The notes beneath the pieces are model-generated. The model was not told where the DNA came from. It searched no databases and saw only the letters and a list, made by a program, of their open reading frames with translations. From Natrialba magadii ATCC 43099 (lineage in GTDB: Archaea; Halobacteriota; Halobacteria; Halobacteriales; Natrialbaceae), in the NCBI RefSeq assembly GCF_000025625.1, contig NC_013924.1, positions 186,001-250,000 on the forward strand: a stretch of 64,000 nucleotides of DNA. Direction: 5' to 3'. Both the position numbers and the translations under genes were made by a program. Below, piece by piece: positions 6,709-60,378 of this stretch. Position 1 is the stretch's first letter, and each line of letters opens with the position of its first letter.

Positions 6709-7347
6709 GGCTCTGTTAAAACCCTCTTCTTTAGACATTTATTCGCATGAATCTACTGCACACTACACGTGCAAACTGGATATGAAGAATTATACACAGT
6801 TGTCCCATCTCCGCCCATATGAGAAGGCGGGAGTTCATTGCAGTTGGCTGCTGTTCTGTTTGTGGAATTAGTGCCGGCTGTCTCGATGAGGACGACTCTG
6901 AGCCTGTCCCCGAGATTGGTAGCTTAGAAGTCCGAAACGATCAACGGGAAGAAGATCACGAGTTCATGGTTCAAATTGAGGACGAAGAGGGAACCGTGTT
7001 CAAAGAGACATATCACCTTGAAGCAGCCGACTCGGGTGAATCCGCTATCGCGCTCGAAGATCCCGTTGAGCCGGGAGCGCATACCGTCCGAGTCGAGGTT
7101 GATGAGTACTCCGCAACTATGGATGCGCAAGACCGTATCACAGACGATCAAACGTGTATCCGTTTGCAATTCTATCTGGGTCCTGAAACCCTCCACAGCG
7201 AATATCAATTGTACGACCGATGCGAGTGACGATCGAAAAGTGGATCATTCACAGGGCATTACTGTTCCTCTAAACGTTAGGTGTATTCCCTGTACTTACC
7301 GCACAGGGTGCCAAAACTATCATTTTCTAAGGGTTTCAACAGAACTG
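6709..7347. mobile_element. Passenger-gene cassette A (639 bp)
   Basis: The left end starts GGCTCTGTTAAAACCCTC at 6709. The right end, read inward on the minus strand, starts AGTTCTGTTGAAACCC from 7347. Flanks are ACGAGAAT (left) and GCGAGAAT (right), an 8-bp target duplication with one mismatch. The only gene inside is the lipoprotein at 6819; there is no transposase. The ends match those at 47924, 48575, 59235 and 59847. Confidence 0.75.
6819..7229 (+). CDS. Tat-exported lipoprotein, unknown function
   Basis: A 136-residue protein that begins MRRREFIAVG and has the lipobox-like ISAGC, with Cys at about residue 21. This is the usual haloarchaeal combination of Tat export and lipid anchoring. 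The mature part is acidic, and the spacing of its hydrophobic residues suggests a small beta-sandwich; two late Cys could form a disulfide. It is the sole passenger of cassette A. AATTATACA, about 28 nt upstream, fits a leaderless promoter carried within the cassette. Family not recognised. Confidence 0.8.
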   Translation: MRRREFIAVGCCSVCGISAGCLDEDDSEPVPEIGSLEVRNDQREEDHEFMVQIEDEEGTVFKETYHLEAADSGESAIALEDPVEPGAHTVRVEVDEYSATMDAQDRITDDQTCIRLQFYLGPETLHSEYQLYDRCE

Positions 7348-28092: not shown

Positions 28093-28376
28093 GCGTTCCT
28101 ATCTATCAATCCTTGCTATAAAAGAGGCGAGAATGCCTCGCCCTCAAGGAACGACCCACCGCGGCTGTGGCGAGCAAGTAGGACAAACAGGCAGGCCAGA
28201 CGAGAGTGAAACACTGGTCTGTTGAGTGCCATCAACTGCTGCCCCATAGCATAACCAATTGGCTGTTACATGTACTCAATCAGTCGGCTCTGTTGAAACT
28301 CATACTACCTGACACGAGAGGGGTGCTGAATACAGCAAAGCAACCTGGCGGTTCCGAACAGCTATGTTCATATCAA

Positions 28377-29093
28377 ATGGCTACACCTACTCTCTCAAAA
28401 GTTGTCAAATCAAGACATTTTAATAAAATTAGCCTTATTATCAATATAATGATTGGGGTGTTACGGCGTTCCCAAGCAACTGTGTTGTTTTTGGTGACAG
28501 TCTGGGTATTGTATGGGCTCAGGTTGGGAATTGAATCCCTCTACGGCAAGGAGATTGCCCTTTCACTATTCGCAGTACACTTCTCTCACCTAGAGTATGT
28601 ATGGACCTGGGTGACTGCGCCCCTTGGCCACGGCAATCTCGCACATTTATTGTTCAACAGTTGGCTTGCATTGTTTATTATCCCACCAGTTGAACGGGTC
28701 TTAGGGACCACGAAGACGGGCGTGGCTTACATTGTGGGTGGAGCACTCTGTGCTATCATCGGGACCGTACTGGTCGTATTCGTCCGTCTCCCGTTCCTCC
28801 CTGATGCGACTACTTCTGGTGGGATAGGGTCAAGTATTGGATTGTTCGTTCTCTTGGGGTTGAGCCTTCGCCACTACTGGTCGTATCAGAACCCACCGTT
28901 GGCAGAGAGCGGCATTGATATGAAAAATTCCACGTTTTTCAGCATACTGTTAGTGATCAGTCTCGGTGGGGTTGTATTCGATATCTGGCGGAAATCAGTC
29001 GGATTGGCATTTCCTGGACTGGGCCATCACTATCACGCTGTCGGGCTTGTGCTCGGAGCGTTGATCAGCGACGTGATTTCAATACAGAATTAA
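28377..29093 (+). CDS. Rhomboid-like intramembrane serine protease
   Basis: About 239 residues with six or so membrane helices. Signature elements are present: APLGHGNLAHLLFNSW (the HxxxN oxyanion helix), GGIGSSIGLFVL (GxSxG with the nucleophile Ser), and LGHHYHAVGLVLG (catalytic His). Rhomboids cut transmembrane substrates within the bilayer. The start is uncertain: ATG 28377 or 28449; earlier ATGs lie in the cassette end. AT-rich coding compared with the GC-rich neighbours suggests separate origin. Confidence 0.8.
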   Translation: MATPTLSKVVKSRHFNKISLIINIMIGVLRRSQATVLFLVTVWVLYGLRLGIESLYGKEIALSLFAVHFSHLEYVWTWVTAPLGHGNLAHLLFNSWLALFIIPPVERVLGTTKTGVAYIVGGALCAIIGTVLVVFVRLPFLPDATTSGGIGSSIGLFVLLGLSLRHYWSYQNPPLAESGIDMKNSTFFSILLVISLGGVVFDIWRKSVGLAFPGLGHHYHAVGLVLGALISDVISIQN

Positions 29094-29207
29094 TAAGGGA
29101 AATTGTTTTTAGTGATAGGAGGTTATATCATTTGTCTTGCATTATTTATTGACTCATCTATAATCATCAGTTTGTGAGGGCGGCGTATATTTGTGCAATA
29201 CATGCGC

Positions 29208-30145
29208 TATCGGGCTTGTTTAGGCGCGGGAGATTAGTGGTCTCAGAGCTTCACAGCTTGCTCGATGTTCCTAACGGCAGTCTTTAGGACGAGTTCTCTG
29301 AACTGGCCAAACCACGTTCTAGCCCGCAACGTCTCGCCGAACCGATGCTTCAGTGCAAAGAAGATCACCTCGGCGATCGACCGGCGGTGATAGACGGTTT
29401 CGTTGTGGCGAGCGTTGTGCGCTTTATTGAGTGCGTAGAACTCACGATGTTTGATCACCGGGCGGATGCCAGCGTCCCTGAGTTCGTGCCGGAGCGCGTC
29501 CCAGTCGTAGCTTTTGTCAGCGGCGATCGTGCTCAATCGGGTGCGATTTCTCGTCAGTACCTGCCGTCCAACTTGGGTATCATGAGGTTGTTTCATCGAG
29601 CAATGAATGTCGAGGATGACGCTGGTATCGCAATCGACGAGCGCTGTCGTCTTGATGTCGTCAAAATTGTAGCCGACGCGGAGAACGTAGTGACGGCTGG
29701 CCTGATGCCGTTTGAAACCAGTTGCGTCGATCGCTTGGACGTCGCCGAGTTCGTGCAGTGAGACAGACAGCCGCAGCAACACCCGCCAGATCCGCATTCT
29801 GAGATCCTGCTTCCGCGTGCAGACGGTGGTAAAATCCGGAAGCTGATCCACAGACAGTCCGAGTTTAGCAGCAATTGCAGGCATTTCGTACAAGATATCG
29901 AGTAATCGGCGGTAGGGCTGATTCAGATACTCTCTGAGACAGTGAATCGAGACGATCACCCAGTCAGCATAGCCGCCGTCACCCTTCTCGACCGCCGGTG
30001 CTGGCTCGCCAATGACAGCATCCTGGGACAAATCGACGCATCGGTCGGTGAAACGAGCGAGTTGCGACGGCATACTCGCCGCTTCCTTACTCAACTCTAC
30101 ATAATCCCGGTCGAGACATCAACTGAGCGGCGTCTAAACATGGCC
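29208..30145 (-). mobile_element. IS5-family insertion sequence (about 0.94 kb)
   Basis: The left terminus GGGCTTGTTTAGGCGC (about 29208) and right terminus, read inward, GGCCATGTTTAGACGC (about 30145) are imperfect inverted repeats around the transposase. No clear target duplication was found. The boundaries are good to a few bases. Confidence 0.75.
29243..30094 (-). CDS. IS5-family transposase (ISH1-like group)
   Basis: 283 residues, uninterrupted. DDE elements: VQAIDATGFKRHQAS (first Asp), STIAADKSYDWDALRHEL (second Asp), and NETVYHRRSIAEVIFFALKH (Glu region). The C-terminus FGQFRELVLKTAVRNIEQAV is typical. ATG 30073 (MPSQLARF) is an alternative start. The C-terminal fragment at 13159-13377 is from a related but different element. 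Confidence 0.9.
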   Translation of the reverse strand: MSKEAASMPSQLARFTDRCVDLSQDAVIGEPAPAVEKGDGGYADWVIVSIHCLREYLNQPYRRLLDILYEMPAIAAKLGLSVDQLPDFTTVCTRKQDLRMRIWRVLLRLSVSLHELGDVQAIDATGFKRHQASRHYVLRVGYNFDDIKTTALVDCDTSVILDIHCSMKQPHDTQVGRQVLTRNRTRLSTIAADKSYDWDALRHELRDAGIRPVIKHREFYALNKAHNARHNETVYHRRSIAEVIFFALKHRFGETLRARTWFGQFRELVLKTAVRNIEQAVKL

Positions 30146-30439
30146 CGCGCCCCGTATTCAGCACGGTTGCTAAAACCTATCACTGATTAATGATTTCAAC
30201 AAGGCCGAATAACCCACAGTTGGAGTTTTAGGCGAGAATGCGTAGCCCGTGAACCCCGATGGTGAATCGCTCCGTTCGTCCCGCTCGCGATCTGTAACAT
30301 CCCATTCGTAGTCGGTTGGTTTAATCTCGGCTCCGAAGCCGTGTCAGTTTGCGTGTTCGGAGCGACTGAGAAGTTCGATATTCCCTGGCTTGTTGTCCCC
30401 ACCTAACGCCATTTGTATCGAGACAGGTACATTACGTGG

Positions 30440-37695: not shown

Positions 37696-37968
37696 TTACA
37701 CACCTTCCTTGTCAGCATTACGGGCTGCTGTCCAGCCTCGATGGAAAACAGCAAGCTGAGTGCTCGAGTCAAAGGCGGTCCCACTTGGTTCGTGGACGAA
37801 CACCCGCTTGCCAGGGACTGGTGTCACCAGATCGTTATCGACAAGTTCGGTAACGAGCTTTCGGGCGGCTGTGTCGCCGATATCTGCTGTCACGACGCGA
37901 GTTGCATCCCGATCATGGGCAACGAGTCTGGCTTCGAACCGTCTGGCTTTGTTGAAACCCACAATCAC
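37696..37968 (-). CDS. Small haloarchaeal protein, 5' end replaced by cassette E
   Basis: 90 residues as read. RRFEARLVAHDRDATRVVTA, ELVDNDLVTPVPGKRVFVHE, and FDSSTQLAVFHRGWTAAR read like a conserved haloarchaeal family with a winged-helix-like outline; the function is unknown. Codons before RRF (from 37945 upward) belong to the inverted repeat of cassette E, so the native start is lost and ATG 37968 is accidental. The region 37468-37695 has no gene. Confidence 0.55.
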   Translation of the reverse strand: MIVGFNKARRFEARLVAHDRDATRVVTADIGDTAARKLVTELVDNDLVTPVPGKRVFVHEPSGTAFDSSTQLAVFHRGWTAARNADKEGV

Positions 37969-38461
37969 TGATAGTTAGGGATGGTCGTGCTGAATACAGA
38001 GCATTAGTGCAGCACGGCCGCATCGCTTGTTTCCCACGTTAATCAACGAACAAGAATTCAATCGACTTGTAAAAGTGTCGGTCACTCGTTAAGAAAGAGT
38101 AGATAATATGCCATCATCATTCCAAGAAACGCTCCACCGAACACAACAAACCCAACGGCTGTTCCAAGATATCCTCCACCAAAGACAGTGCCAGCCGCGT
38201 TTGCAAGCCATCCTGCGATAACGAGTGTAAGTAGCAAGTATGCGATATTTGCTAACCAACGTAGAGACTCTAAGAGATTTTCAATTAACACTTGTTTCGT
38301 GATATCCATAAACTGGTCTATGACTCTACAAAATATGATTCTTCTGGTTCCAATCTGTACTGCCGATCATATACTCACAAATCAATCCAGAGTCCGTACC
38401 ACACTCGCGCCCTGTATTCAGCACGACAATCCTATCACGTTCTGAGGGTTTCAACAGAGCC
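37945..38461. mobile_element. Passenger-gene cassette E (517 bp)
   Basis: The left end starts GGCTTTGTTGAAACCCAC at 37945, with GTCGTGCTGAATACAGAGC inside. The right end, read inward from 38461, starts GGCTCTGTTGAAACCCTC with GTCGTGCTGAATACAGGGC. Similarity between the ends extends about 60 bp or more. Flanks AACCGTCT / AATTGTGA do not match. The single gene inside is the membrane protein at 38082. Confidence 0.7.
38082..38309 (-). CDS. Small two-TM membrane protein, passenger of cassette E
   Basis: 75 residues. Two membrane helices (about 18-37 and 49-72) with a Gly-rich turn (GTVFGGGYLGTAVG). The coding sequence is more AT-rich than the chromosomal-type genes around it. No family recognised. 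Its position inside the cassette parallels the membrane protein in cassette F. Confidence 0.65.
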   Translation of the reverse strand: MDITKQVLIENLLESLRWLANIAYLLLTLVIAGWLANAAGTVFGGGYLGTAVGFVVFGGAFLGMMMAYYLLFLNE

Positions 38462-46417: not shown

Positions 46418-46762
46418 CTAGAGCCATAGTGTCTCTATGCGTTGCTCTATTGCCGTGAGGACGGTAGAATATACTTCGAGTGGATGGAGCGACGGGAGTT
46501 CGAGGTCGGTAATTTCGGTGACAGACGGTGGCTTGTGGAAGTGCAACCGGGCGTTATGCGTGTTAGGGTGCCGGTCCCAGCGACACTCCCAGCGTTCCCC
46601 GTTCTCGTGCCCTTCGACGTAGTGGACCGAGAAATCGCCAGTCGTGAACCACCGAATGCCAAGACGGGCTGCTGTCACTGAGTCCGGGTATCGTCCAGCG
46701 TCGAGCAGTCCACGAAGCAGCCGAGGTTCGTAGGAGTCCGGGTCAAACGCAGTCTCCGCCAC
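46418..46762 (-). CDS. TumE-like (DUF6516-type) protein
   Basis: 114 residues from GTG 46762. ARLGIRWFTTGDFSVHYVEG, WECRWDRHPNTHNARLHFHK and a final helix AIEQRIETLW are the family hallmark, shared with the split gene at 59059-60093. Some members are described as toxins paired with TumA antitoxins; assignment here is by resemblance. The frame is open further upstream without a start (RQTLRLLERHLSSDSL precedes it), so the N-terminus may be trimmed. Confidence 0.65.
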   Translation of the reverse strand: MAETAFDPDSYEPRLLRGLLDAGRYPDSVTAARLGIRWFTTGDFSVHYVEGHENGERWECRWDRHPNTHNARLHFHKPPSVTEITDLELPSLHPLEVYSTVLTAIEQRIETLWL

Positions 46763-46861
46763 GAGTGAATCCGACGACAGGTGTCGCTCCAGTAGGCGCA
46801 GTGTCTGTCGATCCGGTAGGCCTGTCGAGTGTGGCGCCGAATCCTTCGGTGGCTAGCTCAT

Positions 46862-47923: not shown

Positions 47924-48575
47924 GGCTCTGTTGAAATCCTCAGAGAGTGATATGTTTCTGTGGTCGCGCTGAATATATCGCGCGAATCGGTCACTACTGG
48001 TGATTGATTAAGTGCCTCGAATACGAGTGATAAGATATGCCAGAAATAAATCCTCCACCGCTCTTCGAAAAGAAATATGAAGGGCGACCACCAGTAGATA
48101 TTCTCGGTCTTGTAGCTGGATTAGTAGTGTTTGCAGGCTTCTCATTCTTGTTTGCGGCATTATCCCAGTTATCGGGGCCGGTTGTTGAAACTGGGATCAG
48201 TCCCCAAACTGTCGCCGCTCTCCAATGGAGTGGGGTAGGAATTATCCTTGGTGTATTGGCGATCTTTGTGTATCAACGAAGGCCTATCGGCTGGTACGGA
48301 ACACTCGTAGCGGCGATAGCTGGGGCGATTCAGGCATTGAGACTAGATATTCCATTTGGGTCGGTTTTGATCATCTACCTATCTGTTCCGCTGGTCGTGC
48401 TCACTCTCCTGTTGGTACGTCGTGACATGTTTTTGGGTCGGTAGATACGCAGTTCGTGTGACCAGTTCTTTCACCTTATCGGGGTAGAAACGAACGCCAG
48501 TCTCGTGCTGCATCTATCCTCTGTATGCAGCACGACGCACGAAACCTATCATCACTTGAGAATTTCAACAGAGCC
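47924..48575. mobile_element. Passenger-gene cassette F (652 bp) with perfect target duplication
   Basis: The left end starts GGCTCTGTTGAAATCCTC at 47924. The right end, read inward from 48575, starts GGCTCTGTTGAAATTCTC, with GTCGTGCTGCATACAG inside. Both sides are flanked by AAACCTTC (47916-47923 and 48576-48583), a perfect 8-bp target duplication. The only gene is the membrane protein at 48037. This unit looks recently inserted. Confidence 0.88.
48037..48444 (+). CDS. Four-TM membrane protein, passenger of cassette F
   Basis: 135 residues. It has a polar N-terminus (MPEINPPPLFEKKYEGRPPV) and four membrane helices (about 22-43, 62-79, 85-103, 107-126). No family recognised. Low GC relative to neighbours. 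A TTAAG stretch lies about 27 nt upstream, a position suitable for a leaderless promoter inside the cassette. Confidence 0.75.
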   Translation: MPEINPPPLFEKKYEGRPPVDILGLVAGLVVFAGFSFLFAALSQLSGPVVETGISPQTVAALQWSGVGIILGVLAIFVYQRRPIGWYGTLVAAIAGAIQALRLDIPFGSVLIIYLSVPLVVLTLLLVRRDMFLGR

Positions 48576-54339: not shown

Positions 54340-55340
54340 CGCTCTTGTGTAGCACTTTGTTGATTTCACAGCGTAGCTTTGACAGCGTGTTCGAGTGCCT
54401 CTCGCCCTGGTTTCCGCAGTAGTTTTCGTCGAAGTTGGAACGCTCGGAGATACTGTGTGAGCTTATCTTTTGAGATGCCTCGATGAGGCGAGAGCCACGG
54501 TCGCAGCAGCGATCCGTGGCTCTCGCAGGTGTTGACGTGAACGTCTTCGTCGGCGTATTCGCCGTCGCCGTGGACGACGTATTCGCGGTCGAATGCGTCG
54601 TCCTCGGCCAGCGGATCGTAGGCACGAAATCCGTCCGTGTAGATGGTCAGTGGCTCCTTCTCGCGGTTTGCGAGAAGGAGCCGAATAGTCGATTCATCGG
54701 CGGATTTCGCTGGGATCACGTACCGATCGCCGGTACCACGATCGACGATCGTGAACACCGGCGGTTTGTCCTGCTCGTACGATCCTCGTCCACGCGTGGA
54801 CAGGCCACGCGAGCGCGACTCTTGGTCGCGCTCGCGGCCTTTCAACCCTGCAGAAACGTAGATCTCGTCGATTTCGACCGGCCCGACGAGGTCGAGTGAC
54901 CGGGCGTCGAGCGCCTTCGTGAAGCGCTCGACGCGCTGGTAGATCGTTTTGTACTGAACATCGATCTCTAGCTGAAGTTGGCGAAGACTCGTGTTAAACC
55001 GGAGAAATGCGTAAATCGAGAACAGCCACTTCCTGAGCGCGACCTTCGAATGGGCAAAGATCGTGCCGGTCTTGTCGTTGAACGTGCGGTCGCAATTCTT
55101 ACAGAGATAGCGCTGAAAGTGCCCATAGCTGCCGTTCTTGACCGTCAGGTCAGAACGGCAGCGAGGGCAAGTAACACCGTTACGCCAGCGAACCTGCTGC
55201 AACAGGTCCGCTGCGACCGATTCCGACCCAAACACATCTAGCGGAATCATGCCTAACGGACACCGCTGACGCGGTGTCCTTGCTCTCTTCGATTCCACAG
55301 CGACAGCTGAGCAGTATCAACAATCTCCTACAGAAGAGCG
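54340..55340 (-). mobile_element. IS1595-family insertion sequence, copy 2 (1001 bp)
   Basis: The termini CGCTCTTGTGTAGCAC (54340) and, read inward, CGCTCTTCTGTAGGAG (55340) are flanked by TCCAGTAA on both sides (54332-54339 and 55341-55348). The perfect 8-bp duplication is the expected size for IS1595. Same length as copy 1 at 14131. Confidence 0.95.
54366..55250 (-). CDS. IS1595-family transposase (ISXO2-like), intact
   Basis: 294 residues from MIPLDVFG. Zinc ribbon CPRCRSDLTVKNGS ... CKNCDRTF (about 33-60). Catalytic domain: VEIDEIYVSAGLKGRERDQE, later FTIVDRGTGDRYVIPA, and TYTDGFRAYDPLAEDDAF-like region with YTDG. C-terminal NTCESHGSLLRPWLSPHRGI and HGSLLR block typical of the family. 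No stop or frameshift, so this copy could mobilise itself and copy 1. Confidence 0.93.
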   Translation of the reverse strand: MIPLDVFGSESVAADLLQQVRWRNGVTCPRCRSDLTVKNGSYGHFQRYLCKNCDRTFNDKTGTIFAHSKVALRKWLFSIYAFLRFNTSLRQLQLEIDVQYKTIYQRVERFTKALDARSLDLVGPVEIDEIYVSAGLKGRERDQESRSRGLSTRGRGSYEQDKPPVFTIVDRGTGDRYVIPAKSADESTIRLLLANREKEPLTIYTDGFRAYDPLAEDDAFDREYVVHGDGEYADEDVHVNTCESHGSLLRPWLSPHRGISKDKLTQYLRAFQLRRKLLRKPGREALEHAVKATL

Positions 55341-56727: not shown

Positions 56728-56976
56728 ATGGGAACGGCTGATGAGCAGATCCGTGTGAGTAATACGGTGAAACGCGAACTGGAGAAACGGAAGCGCGAAG
56801 GCGAGAGTTACAACGATGTCCTTGAGCGTGTGCTTGGCGAGAAAGTCGTGGGCGACTTCTACGACGGATTTGGTCGCTGGTCTGACGAGGAAGCACAGAG
56901 CGTCCGCGAGGCGCGCCAGAAAGCCAAAGAGAAGCGGAAAAAGCGGATGCGACGACGAGCCGAGAACAGCGCATGA
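56728..56976 (+). CDS. VapB-type antitoxin (DUF7557-like)
   Basis: 82 residues. IRVSNTVKRELEKRKREGES followed by YNDVLERVLGEK is the short ribbon-helix-helix-like N-terminus of haloarchaeal VapB proteins. The basic C-terminal helix (KAKEKRKKRMRRRAE) is unusual for an antitoxin. The stop overlaps the PIN gene start (ATGA). Confidence 0.82.
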   Translation: MGTADEQIRVSNTVKRELEKRKREGESYNDVLERVLGEKVVGDFYDGFGRWSDEEAQSVREARQKAKEKRKKRMRRRAENSA

Positions 56977-57374
56977 AGGTCCTTGATGCGTCGTTTCTGA
57001 TCGACTATCTGGATGGTCTTGGGGAGACCCGCGACTTCTATGAATCCGCAGGTGGTGCTGATGTCCGCTGGGTAATGCCCGTCCCAGCGTACGCAGAGGT
57101 CCTTGTTGGTGAAGGGAATCTTCCGAACGGCGATGTCGACGGAGCACGTGCAGACCTCTCTTGGGCCGAAGTCTACACTGTTGATGAGCAAACGGCGACA
57201 CTGGCAGGCGAGATTGCAGACGAAATCGCGCCTGGAGGTCCTTACCTCGATGGGCCAGACGCGCTGATTGCAGCTGTAGGTCGCGAACTGGACGCGCCTG
57301 TCGTCTCTGGAGACGGTGAGCTCACGCACACAGAGACCAAAAAAGTCATTCAGGTCGAAGAGTACAAAAACTGA
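56973..57374 (+). CDS. PIN-domain toxin (VapC-like)
   Basis: 133 residues. MKVLDASFLIDYLDG (first Asp), VPAYAEVLVGEG (Glu), GPDALIAAVGRELDAPVVSG (Asp), and SGDGELTHTETKK complete the PIN fold. Predicted RNase of the third VapBC-type module in this window. Coupled to the antitoxin before it. Confidence 0.88.
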   Translation: MKVLDASFLIDYLDGLGETRDFYESAGGADVRWVMPVPAYAEVLVGEGNLPNGDVDGARADLSWAEVYTVDEQTATLAGEIADEIAPGGPYLDGPDALIAAVGRELDAPVVSGDGELTHTETKKVIQVEEYKN

Positions 57375-57420: not shown

Positions 57421-58674
<1,254 letters not shown>

Positions 58675-58754
58675 ATGTCATATGTAGAACTAGTATTTCT
58701 TAAACATTAGGGGGTCGGCCTGTCACTGTAGCGTGGTTTGATTCAGCAGTGACA

Positions 58755-59058
<304 letters not shown>

Positions 59059-59234
59059 TTACGGTGGGTTTGACGCACTATTCAGCTGATCGACGTCGTC
59101 GTCCTCGTACGCTGCTCGCCACATCGCATGGACTGCACGAGTGACGAGTGACACTTCGGTCACGTCGATACAGGACGGTTCGGCTGCCGTCGTGGTGGCC
59201 TCGGGAGGAGGATGGAAATGAATTTCGGGTGAGT

Positions 59235-59847
59235 GGCTCTGTTGAAATCCTTAATGAGTGATATGATTCAGCAATCAAACTGAATACAGAGCGCGAATGC
59301 CGCATGGCAAATTGATCAAATTGTGTAGTCAGACCGGTTTCTATGTCAAAAAATTCATTACCCGCGTTAGTTAAGTGAGTGAATGATGAGGAAGTGGAAA
59401 GAAGTAAAACGGGACCTCCAAGCTGCGGGCTATAGGGGGTTTGAATTCGACAGTGGTGAGACTGTCATACCAGAACTGCGAGGTAAGTGGGTCGTCGGAA
59501 AGATCACGCCCAAAGACCATTTCGATGGTGAAGATCAATCGCTCTGGCAGCAATTAACTAGCTTGCTAGGAGGAAGCAACGTCGTTGCATGTGCTGGCCC
59601 AGCGGACGTTCCCGACCCCATCCGAATCATCGCTGACCGGTACGATCTGAACGTCGTGATTGTTAGCGTCTCTTCAGAGTACATCCGTATCGCTCTCTGC
59701 GAACCGCCTGAGAATAGCCTACCCAGCTAATGATTCGACCGTCTCGTTCCGTGTCAGTACCGATGCAAGACAAACGGTACTGAATTTATCCTCTATATTC
59801 AGCACGACGCCCGAAACCTATCACCACTTGAGGATTTCAACAGAGCC
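59235..59847. mobile_element. Passenger-gene cassette G (613 bp) with perfect target duplication
   Basis: The left end starts GGCTCTGTTGAAATCCTT at 59235. The right end, read inward from 59847, starts GGCTCTGTTGAAATCCTC with GTCGTGCTGAATATAGAGG inside. Both sides carry GGGTGAGT (59227-59234 and 59848-59855). The only gene is the 115-residue protein at 59383. Inserted in a TumE-like gene. Confidence 0.9.
59383..59730 (+). CDS. Soluble protein, passenger of cassette G, unknown function
   Basis: 115 residues. MMRKWKEVKRDLQAAGYRGF, then KDHFDGEDQSLWQQLTSLLG and an alternating C-terminal half (IRIIADRYDLNVVIVSVSSE). Predicted alpha/beta, cytoplasmic. No family recognised. It sits in the same place and orientation relative to the cassette left end as the passengers of A and F. 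ATG 59386 is an alternative start. Confidence 0.65.
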   Translation: MMRKWKEVKRDLQAAGYRGFEFDSGETVIPELRGKWVVGKITPKDHFDGEDQSLWQQLTSLLGGSNVVACAGPADVPDPIRIIADRYDLNVVIVSVSSEYIRIALCEPPENSLPS

Positions 59848-60093
59848 GGGTGAGTGTGTATTCGGGTGCCGATCGAATCGCCAGTTGACGTCTTCGCCGT
59901 CGACGTAATGAAACGAATACATCCCCAGTTCGCTCCACTGGATATCGAGTCTCGCAGCGTCGGCGTCTCCAAGACCGTCGCTGAGACTGATCTGCAGTTC
60001 CGTGGGTGCGACGACGTCATCGTACGAGGTTGCGTCGACTAACGGCTCAAGCTCGAGCCAGAGGTCACGAATCCGCTGGAGCGCTGGGAGATA

Positions 60094-60225
60094 GAACAGC
60101 GCGACGACGTCGAGTTTTCGCTCTCGCTGGATGGGATTCGTTGCGCGAGCGCGCTCGCGCAACTCATCAGATGGAAACACTCTTTGAATTCGGTTCACAA
60201 CTACTGAATCCGGTAGGGTGTACAC
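60094..60225 (-). pseudogene. N-terminal fragment of an ISH8-type (IS4) transposase
   Basis: VVNRIQRVFPSDELRERARA followed by TNPIQRERKLDVVALFY is the start of the IS4-family transposases of the ISH8 group. It is cut after about 44 codons where the TumE-like sequence begins. The rest of the IS is not in the window. Confidence 0.7.
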
Positions 60226-60378
60226 ATTCTCTACCGGATTCTCACACTCCTAGTTACTGACGATTCTAGTTCGGCGTCTCTGGGTACCTCGGCTCGCTAA
60301 ACTAGAACGGATGGTTCGTTGGTATAGACGCGGGACTGCGTACGTACGAGCGCAAAAATTGAGCTAGGGGATTTCAGC

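What the first reader, a model, noticed from the sequence alone, without database searches (positions are those of the whole stretch)
59059..60093. Cassette G split a TumE-like gene; clean excision restores the frame
The gene text ...DRHPNTHSP stops at the GGGTGAGT duplicate (59848-59855). On the far side of the cassette, after the second duplicate, the same frame continues EIHFHPPPEATTT and reaches a normal stop at 59059. This shows insertion rather than shared ancestry of the flanks, and independently validates the cassette boundaries.
Basis: seen in the sequence. Interest (0 to 1): 0.8.

Follow-up and report, generated by a model that had tools for sequence, protein, structure and literature searches.

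The report
Transposon cassette splits a toxin-like gene
In a salt-loving archaeon, a small mobile cassette that carries a gene of unknown function but no transposase has jumped into a toxin-like gene; the insertion is real, its kind is already known, and the split gene had already lost its start to another transposon.

Summary
A 613-bp insert (59235-59847) with matching inverted ends and an exact 8-bp target duplication (GGGTGAGT) interrupts an open frame. The two halves, searched separately, hit the same uninterrupted gene in more than 20 haloarchaeal genomes, two codons apart, and the closest relatives have the octamer once. Insertion and boundaries are confirmed.

Two corrections. (1) The upstream half is not the gene's own start: residues 1-45 (60225-60092) are the 5' end of an IS4-family transposase, fused in frame to the gene from its 15th residue. 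The start and the DUF7342 winged-helix partner gene are gone. Excision would give a transposase-toxin chimera, not the ancestral gene. (2) 'TumE-like' is plausible but marginal: the nearest intact orthologue scores below Pfam's TumE cut-off, although two more distant relatives pass it.

The insert is a MIC-like, non-autonomous mobile insertion cassette. Its ends match IS5-family (ISHla2-like) elements in the same genome; its cargo is a 115-aa protein of unknown function. The same cargo family sits in an equivalent cassette, with its own exact 8-bp duplication, in another haloarchaeal family. The window holds three more such cassettes with other cargo. ISH2 is a known haloarchaeal parallel. New member of a known kind.

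The parts
59227..59234 (.). target-site duplication copy 1, GGGTGAGT
   Evidence: single copy in the empty site of five relatives
59848..59855 (.). target-site duplication copy 2, GGGTGAGT
59235..59847 (+). 613-bp transposase-less insertion cassette with IS5-type inverted ends (GGCTCTGTTGAAATC, 15/15; 57 bp at 75%)
   Evidence: the same ends on IS5-family elements in the genome
59383..59730 (+). cassette cargo: 115-aa protein of unknown function, patchy in haloarchaea (38-48% identity)
   Evidence: no Pfam, NCBIfam, PADLOC or confident structural match
59848..60092 (-). upstream remnant of the TumE-like gene (native residues 15-95 of a 150-aa protein)
59059..59229 (-). downstream remnant of the TumE-like gene: the native C-terminal 55 residues plus stop (the first codon lies in the duplicated target)
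60092..60313 (-). remnant of the 5' end of an IS4-family (ISH8-like) insertion sequence; its transposase start (60225-60092) is fused in frame to the TumE-like gene with about 4 nt of overlap at the junction
47924..48575 (+). second cassette of the same kind: 652 bp, exact duplication AAACCTTC, cargo a 135-aa membrane-like protein (48037-48444)
6709..7346 (+). third cassette: 638 bp, duplication 7 of 8, cargo a lipoprotein-like ORF (6819-7229); left end nearly identical to the right end of the genome's IS5 element L070
37945..38461 (+). fourth, older cassette: 517 bp, no duplication left, 75-aa ORF (38082-38309, - strand)

Best explanation
The insert is a non-autonomous mobile insertion cassette: IS5-family (ISHla2/ISH1-type) ends around a cargo gene, with no transposase. 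It was moved in trans by a related IS5-family transposase, probably one like the intact 273-aa enzymes encoded elsewhere in this genome. On insertion it duplicated 8 bp. It landed in a plasmid-borne, TumE-like toxin gene that had already lost its first 14 codons and its DUF7342 partner gene, because a deletion fused it in frame to the 5' end of an IS4-family element. The result is two dead fragments: a chimeric ORF ending in 8 cassette-encoded residues, and an orphan C-terminus. Shown: ends, duplication, empty sites, homology of both halves, IS4 fusion, IS5 elements with the same ends. Inferred: transposition in trans, the order of events, and loss of toxin activity.
For: Exact duplication and 15/15 ends. 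Natural empty sites with one octamer. Both pieces match one ORF, 2 codons apart, in more than 20 genomes. IS4 homology covers 60092-60313 and gene homology stops at 60095 in the close relatives. IS5 transposases with the same ends in the genome, one element with an exact 8-bp duplication, ACTCTTCT (L070). ISHla2 in Halorubrum lacusprofundi has the same left end and one mismatch on the right. The same cargo family in a 517-bp cassette with exact duplication AATATAGA in another haloarchaeal family (L115). At least one such end within 200 bp of the cargo gene in 7 of 24 loci against 0 of 26 control loci, p=0.003.
Against: Most cargo homologues (17 of 24) show no recognisable ends nearby, so the cargo may also live outside cassettes or the ends decay fast. 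The cassette's subterminal sequence differs from the ISHla2-like elements beyond the first ~16-17 bp, so the exact mobilising transposase is not fixed. TumE membership is marginal. No transposition or toxicity data.
Confidence: 0.9

Rival explanations
1. The two halves are unrelated ORFs that happen to flank the cassette; the frame continuity is chance.
For: The downstream piece is short and no Pfam or NCBIfam family recognises it on its own.
Against: Both halves align to one uninterrupted ORF in more than 20 genomes at up to 97% and 95% identity, two codons apart, with the octamer once.
Confidence: 0.01
2. The insert is an IS6-type miniature element (8-bp duplications and GGCxCTGTTGxAAx ends also fit IS6/IS26).
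For: End sequence and duplication length resemble IS6; weak PF13610 hits exist in the genome.
Against: Complete elements in this genome with exactly these ends encode IS5-family transposases (NF033579, 223-241 bits against a cut-off of 140), as does ISHla2.
Confidence: 0.06
3. The insertion is domesticated: the chimeric ORF or the cargo is expressed and selected as a regulator of the TumE-like locus.
For: Both remnants and the cargo have no stops or frameshifts; cargo residues are conserved at 38-48% identity across families.
Against: Open frames are expected for a recent event (95-97% identity to relatives); the C piece shows 4 nonsynonymous codons against 2 synonymous changes; the partner gene is lost; no other genome searched shows this arrangement.
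Confidence: 0.05

Closest known systems
Mobile insertion cassettes (MICs) and transporter ISs as defined by ISfinder authors (PMC3129680)
   Same: IS-type ends and target duplication around a passenger gene, no transposase, cognate transposase available in trans; related ISs in the genome also carry passengers (DUF4870 protein, L068/L069).
   Different: IS5-family ends in a haloarchaeon, with a cargo family of unknown function; mobility not demonstrated.
ISH2 of Halobacterium and HqIRS32 of Haloquadratum (PMC10264941, PMC3119063)
   Same: About 520-530 bp transposase-less element with a protein-coding ORF, mobilised in trans by a related IS.
   Different: ISH2 has ISH8 (IS4-family) termini and 10-bp duplications; this one has IS5-type ends and 8-bp duplications. 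The cargo was not compared with the ISH2 protein.
ISHla2, IS5-family insertion sequence of Halorubrum lacusprofundi
   Same: Ends GGCTCTGTTGAAATC and GGCTTTGTTGAAATC.
   Different: It encodes a transposase; the cassette does not, and subterminal sequence differs.
TumE (PF20126/DUF6516), toxin of the TumE-TumA systems (PMC10584680)
   Same: Intact relatives lie directly downstream of a winged-helix partner with overlapping ends; two relatives pass the TumE cut-off.
   Different: The closest intact orthologue scores 16.3 bits against a cut-off of 23.4; the partner is DUF7342, and no RelB-like antitoxin was seen.

Membership tests
Mobile insertion cassette (MIC) | inverted ends shared with a known IS | tested here: met
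   15/15 ends shared with IS5-family elements L068-L070 and with ISHla2
Mobile insertion cassette (MIC) | target-site duplication of the length made by that IS | tested here: met
   8 bp exact; 8 bp also for IS5 element L070 and ISH1 (PMC10264941)
Mobile insertion cassette (MIC) | no transposase, but a passenger gene | tested here: met
   sole cargo ORF of 115 aa with no transposase match
Mobile insertion cassette (MIC) | mobilised in trans by the cognate transposase | not testable with these tools
   needs a transposition assay; intact candidate transposases exist
TumE toxin (PF20126) | match over the Pfam cut-off | tested here: inconclusive
   nearest intact orthologue 16.3 against 23.4 bits; two relatives that match the window gene pass (G118, G030); profile comparison weak (16% probability)
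TumE toxin (PF20126) | bicistronic with an antitoxin partner | tested here: inconclusive
   intact loci: DUF7342 winged-helix gene directly upstream with overlapping ends; in the window the partner is lost
TumE toxin (PF20126) | toxic on expression, neutralised by the partner | not testable with these tools
IS4 family (ISH8-like) remnant | homology to the 5' end of a complete IS4-family element | tested here: met
   60092-60313 90-93% identical to L044-L046; transposase NF033592 271.6 bits; 37% identical to the ISH8 transposase
IS6 family | IS6-type transposase bounded by these ends | tested here: not met
   complete elements with these ends encode IS5-family transposases

The most novel reading that the evidence does not exclude
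Haloarchaea hold a long-lived lineage of IS5-type cassettes in which one small protein of unknown function has been kept together with the same ends across families (38-48% aa identity), so the protein may help the cassette itself (for example in transposition, target choice or maintenance) rather than being a random passenger.
Probability: 0.25. Interest if true: 0.5.

Novelty: new member of a known kind. Interest (0 to 1): 0.25.

Why it matters
It gives precise, independently verified boundaries for a gene-carrying, transposase-less cassette in haloarchaea and shows that such cassettes can break toxin-like genes on plasmids. The recurrence of the same cargo inside equivalent cassettes in another family makes it testable whether the cargo is selected with the element. 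It also warns that ORFs next to cassettes may be chimeras with other insertion sequences.

Tried and rejected
IS6 origin (suggested by ends and 8-bp duplication) was dropped when the full-length elements with the same ends proved to be IS5 family. IS1595, whose transposase lies at 54366-55298, was considered and dropped for the same reason. Rfam scan of the window: no match. Cargo function: nothing in Pfam, NCBIfam, PADLOC or PDB sequence search; the AlphaFold model (mean pLDDT 74.6) has no confident fold match, best E 0.06. The TIM-barrel family hint (12 of 20 members, best E 0.003) is too short and weak to use. Viral contigs: no cargo relative. ISHtu1 in Haloterrigena turkmenica: no pair with these ends found. 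The in-silico removal of the insert and joining of flanks was not done.

Full report
What was claimed and what is there. The insert occupies 59235-59847 (613 bp), bounded by identical 15-bp inverted ends (57 bp at 75% identity when extended) and by an exact 8-bp duplication GGGTGAGT at 59227-59234 and 59848-59855. The upstream frame reads to ...FDRHPNTHSP at the duplicate; after it the present ORF runs only 8 more residues (GSVEILKW) into the cassette. The downstream piece PEIHFHPPPEATTT... is open to the TAA at 59059-59061.

Insertion tested without joining the flanks. The two pieces were searched separately. Both hit the same ORF in more than 20 haloarchaeal genomes; where the N piece ends, the C piece begins 6 nt later, i.e. 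the residues HS. In Natronorubrum bangense plasmid NZ_CP031308.1 the two flanks match at 97.2% and 94.7% nucleotide identity, the two alignments overlap by the duplicated octamer and a neighbouring base on each side, and the octamer is present once. Five relatives have exactly one GGGTGAGT; three more distant ones have a one-base variant.

The upstream half is a chimera. Query residues 1-49 match the N-terminus of 447-aa proteins present in many copies, while residues from about 42 onward match the gene family. At DNA level 60092-60313 is 90-93% identical to the 5' end of an IS4-family element, and gene homology stops at about 60095 in the close relatives, leaving about 4 nt of overlap. The transposase is IS4 family (271.6 bits) and 37% identical to the ISH8 transposase. 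Intact relatives are 150 aa and begin MSEDDRAGEFGPIYLPALQ; the window has native sequence only from residue 15. In intact loci a DUF7342 winged-helix gene lies directly upstream with overlapping ends, and in several a SWIM zinc-finger gene lies downstream. Neither was seen next to the remnant in the window (homology to N. bangense ends at 58936). The gene was thus already truncated, and excision would not give back the ancestral gene.

Is it TumE? The nearest intact orthologue matches Pfam TumE over the conserved middle at 16.3 bits, below the 23.4 cut-off. Two relatives that match the window protein (G118:C41, G030:C1) do pass the cut-off at 25.0 and 23.7 bits. A small profile-profile comparison aligned only the Y-FHY...RFD core. 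TumE proteins are experimentally supported translation-targeting toxins in bicistrons with an antitoxin, mostly downstream of the partner (PMC10584680). 'TumE-like' is a fair lead, not an established membership.

What the cassette is. Its sole clear ORF is a 115-aa protein without known family. Elements elsewhere in this genome with the same 15-bp ends encode 273-aa IS5-family transposases (NF033579, 223.5 bits): L068 and L069 (1471 bp each, with a DUF4870 passenger), and L070 (1382 bp, exact 8-bp duplication ACTCTTCT, but its longest transposase ORF is only 209 aa). ISHla2 of Halorubrum lacusprofundi has the same ends apart from one mismatch. The genome has 40 matches to the end pattern (up to 2 mismatches) against 8 for the reversed control. 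Three more cassettes lie in the window with other cargo (47924-48575, exact duplication; 6709-7346, 7 of 8; 37945-38461, none), and L076 (715 bp, 7 of 8) and a 125-bp MITE (L072, exact) lie on the chromosome.

The cargo travels with the ends. Cargo homologues occur in 26 of 293 genomes of the order, 38-48% identical. In L115, from another haloarchaeal family, the homologue lies in a 517-bp cassette with ends at 0 and 1 mismatches and exact duplication AATATAGA. L107 and L108 also have both ends (532 and 530 bp), without duplications. Overall 7 of 24 cargo loci have at least one end within 200 bp, against 0 of 26 control loci (p=0.003). The control loci are those of the TumE-like gene, a convenience control rather than a random sample.

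Comparison with the known. This fits the definition of a mobile insertion cassette, with passenger-carrying ISs as its relatives (PMC3129680). Haloarchaea have a direct parallel in ISH2, a 531-bp MITE with an ORF, mobilised by the ISH8 transposase (PMC10264941), and its Haloquadratum relative HqIRS32 (PMC3119063). ISH1, an IS of 1130 bp with 8-bp duplications, is listed in PMC10264941; that it is IS5 family is from my own knowledge. The finding is a new member of a known kind.

Limits. No transposition, expression or toxicity data. The exact mobilising transposase is inferred from the ends only. The order of events (IS4 fusion first, cassette second) is the likeliest reading, since no antitoxin partner remains, but it is not proven. 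The cargo structure model (mean pLDDT 74.6, three sequences) has no confident fold match.

Noticed in passing
window 6709-7346, 37945-38461, 47924-48575: Three further transposase-less cassettes with the same IS5-type ends and different small cargo ORFs (lipoprotein-like; 75 aa; 135-aa membrane-like).
   Followed up: partly
L076 2099-2813; L073 972-2118; L072 352-476: Chromosomal relatives: a 715-bp cassette whose lipoprotein-like cargo is weakly similar to that of window 6819-7229 (23%, E 5e-05), a 1147-bp element with a methyltransferase ORF, and a 125-bp MITE with an exact 8-bp duplication.
   Followed up: partly
window 28286-30206: An IS5-family transposase about 91% identical to ISHtu1, next to a rhomboid-like protease ORF, between ends of this type but without a matching duplication.
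   Followed up: partly
window 57421-58800: IS605-type TnpB (RNA-guided endonuclease family) gene next to the split gene, with a palindrome CCCACGGCTAAAGCCGTGGG near 58762-58782 that may be its right end.
   Followed up: no
window 56728-57374: VapB antitoxin-like and PIN-domain (VapC-like) gene pair on the far side of the TnpB gene.
   Followed up: no
window about 46559-46819: A second, distant relative of the TumE-like protein (about 40% identity), seen as L007/L009 136-396.
   Followed up: no
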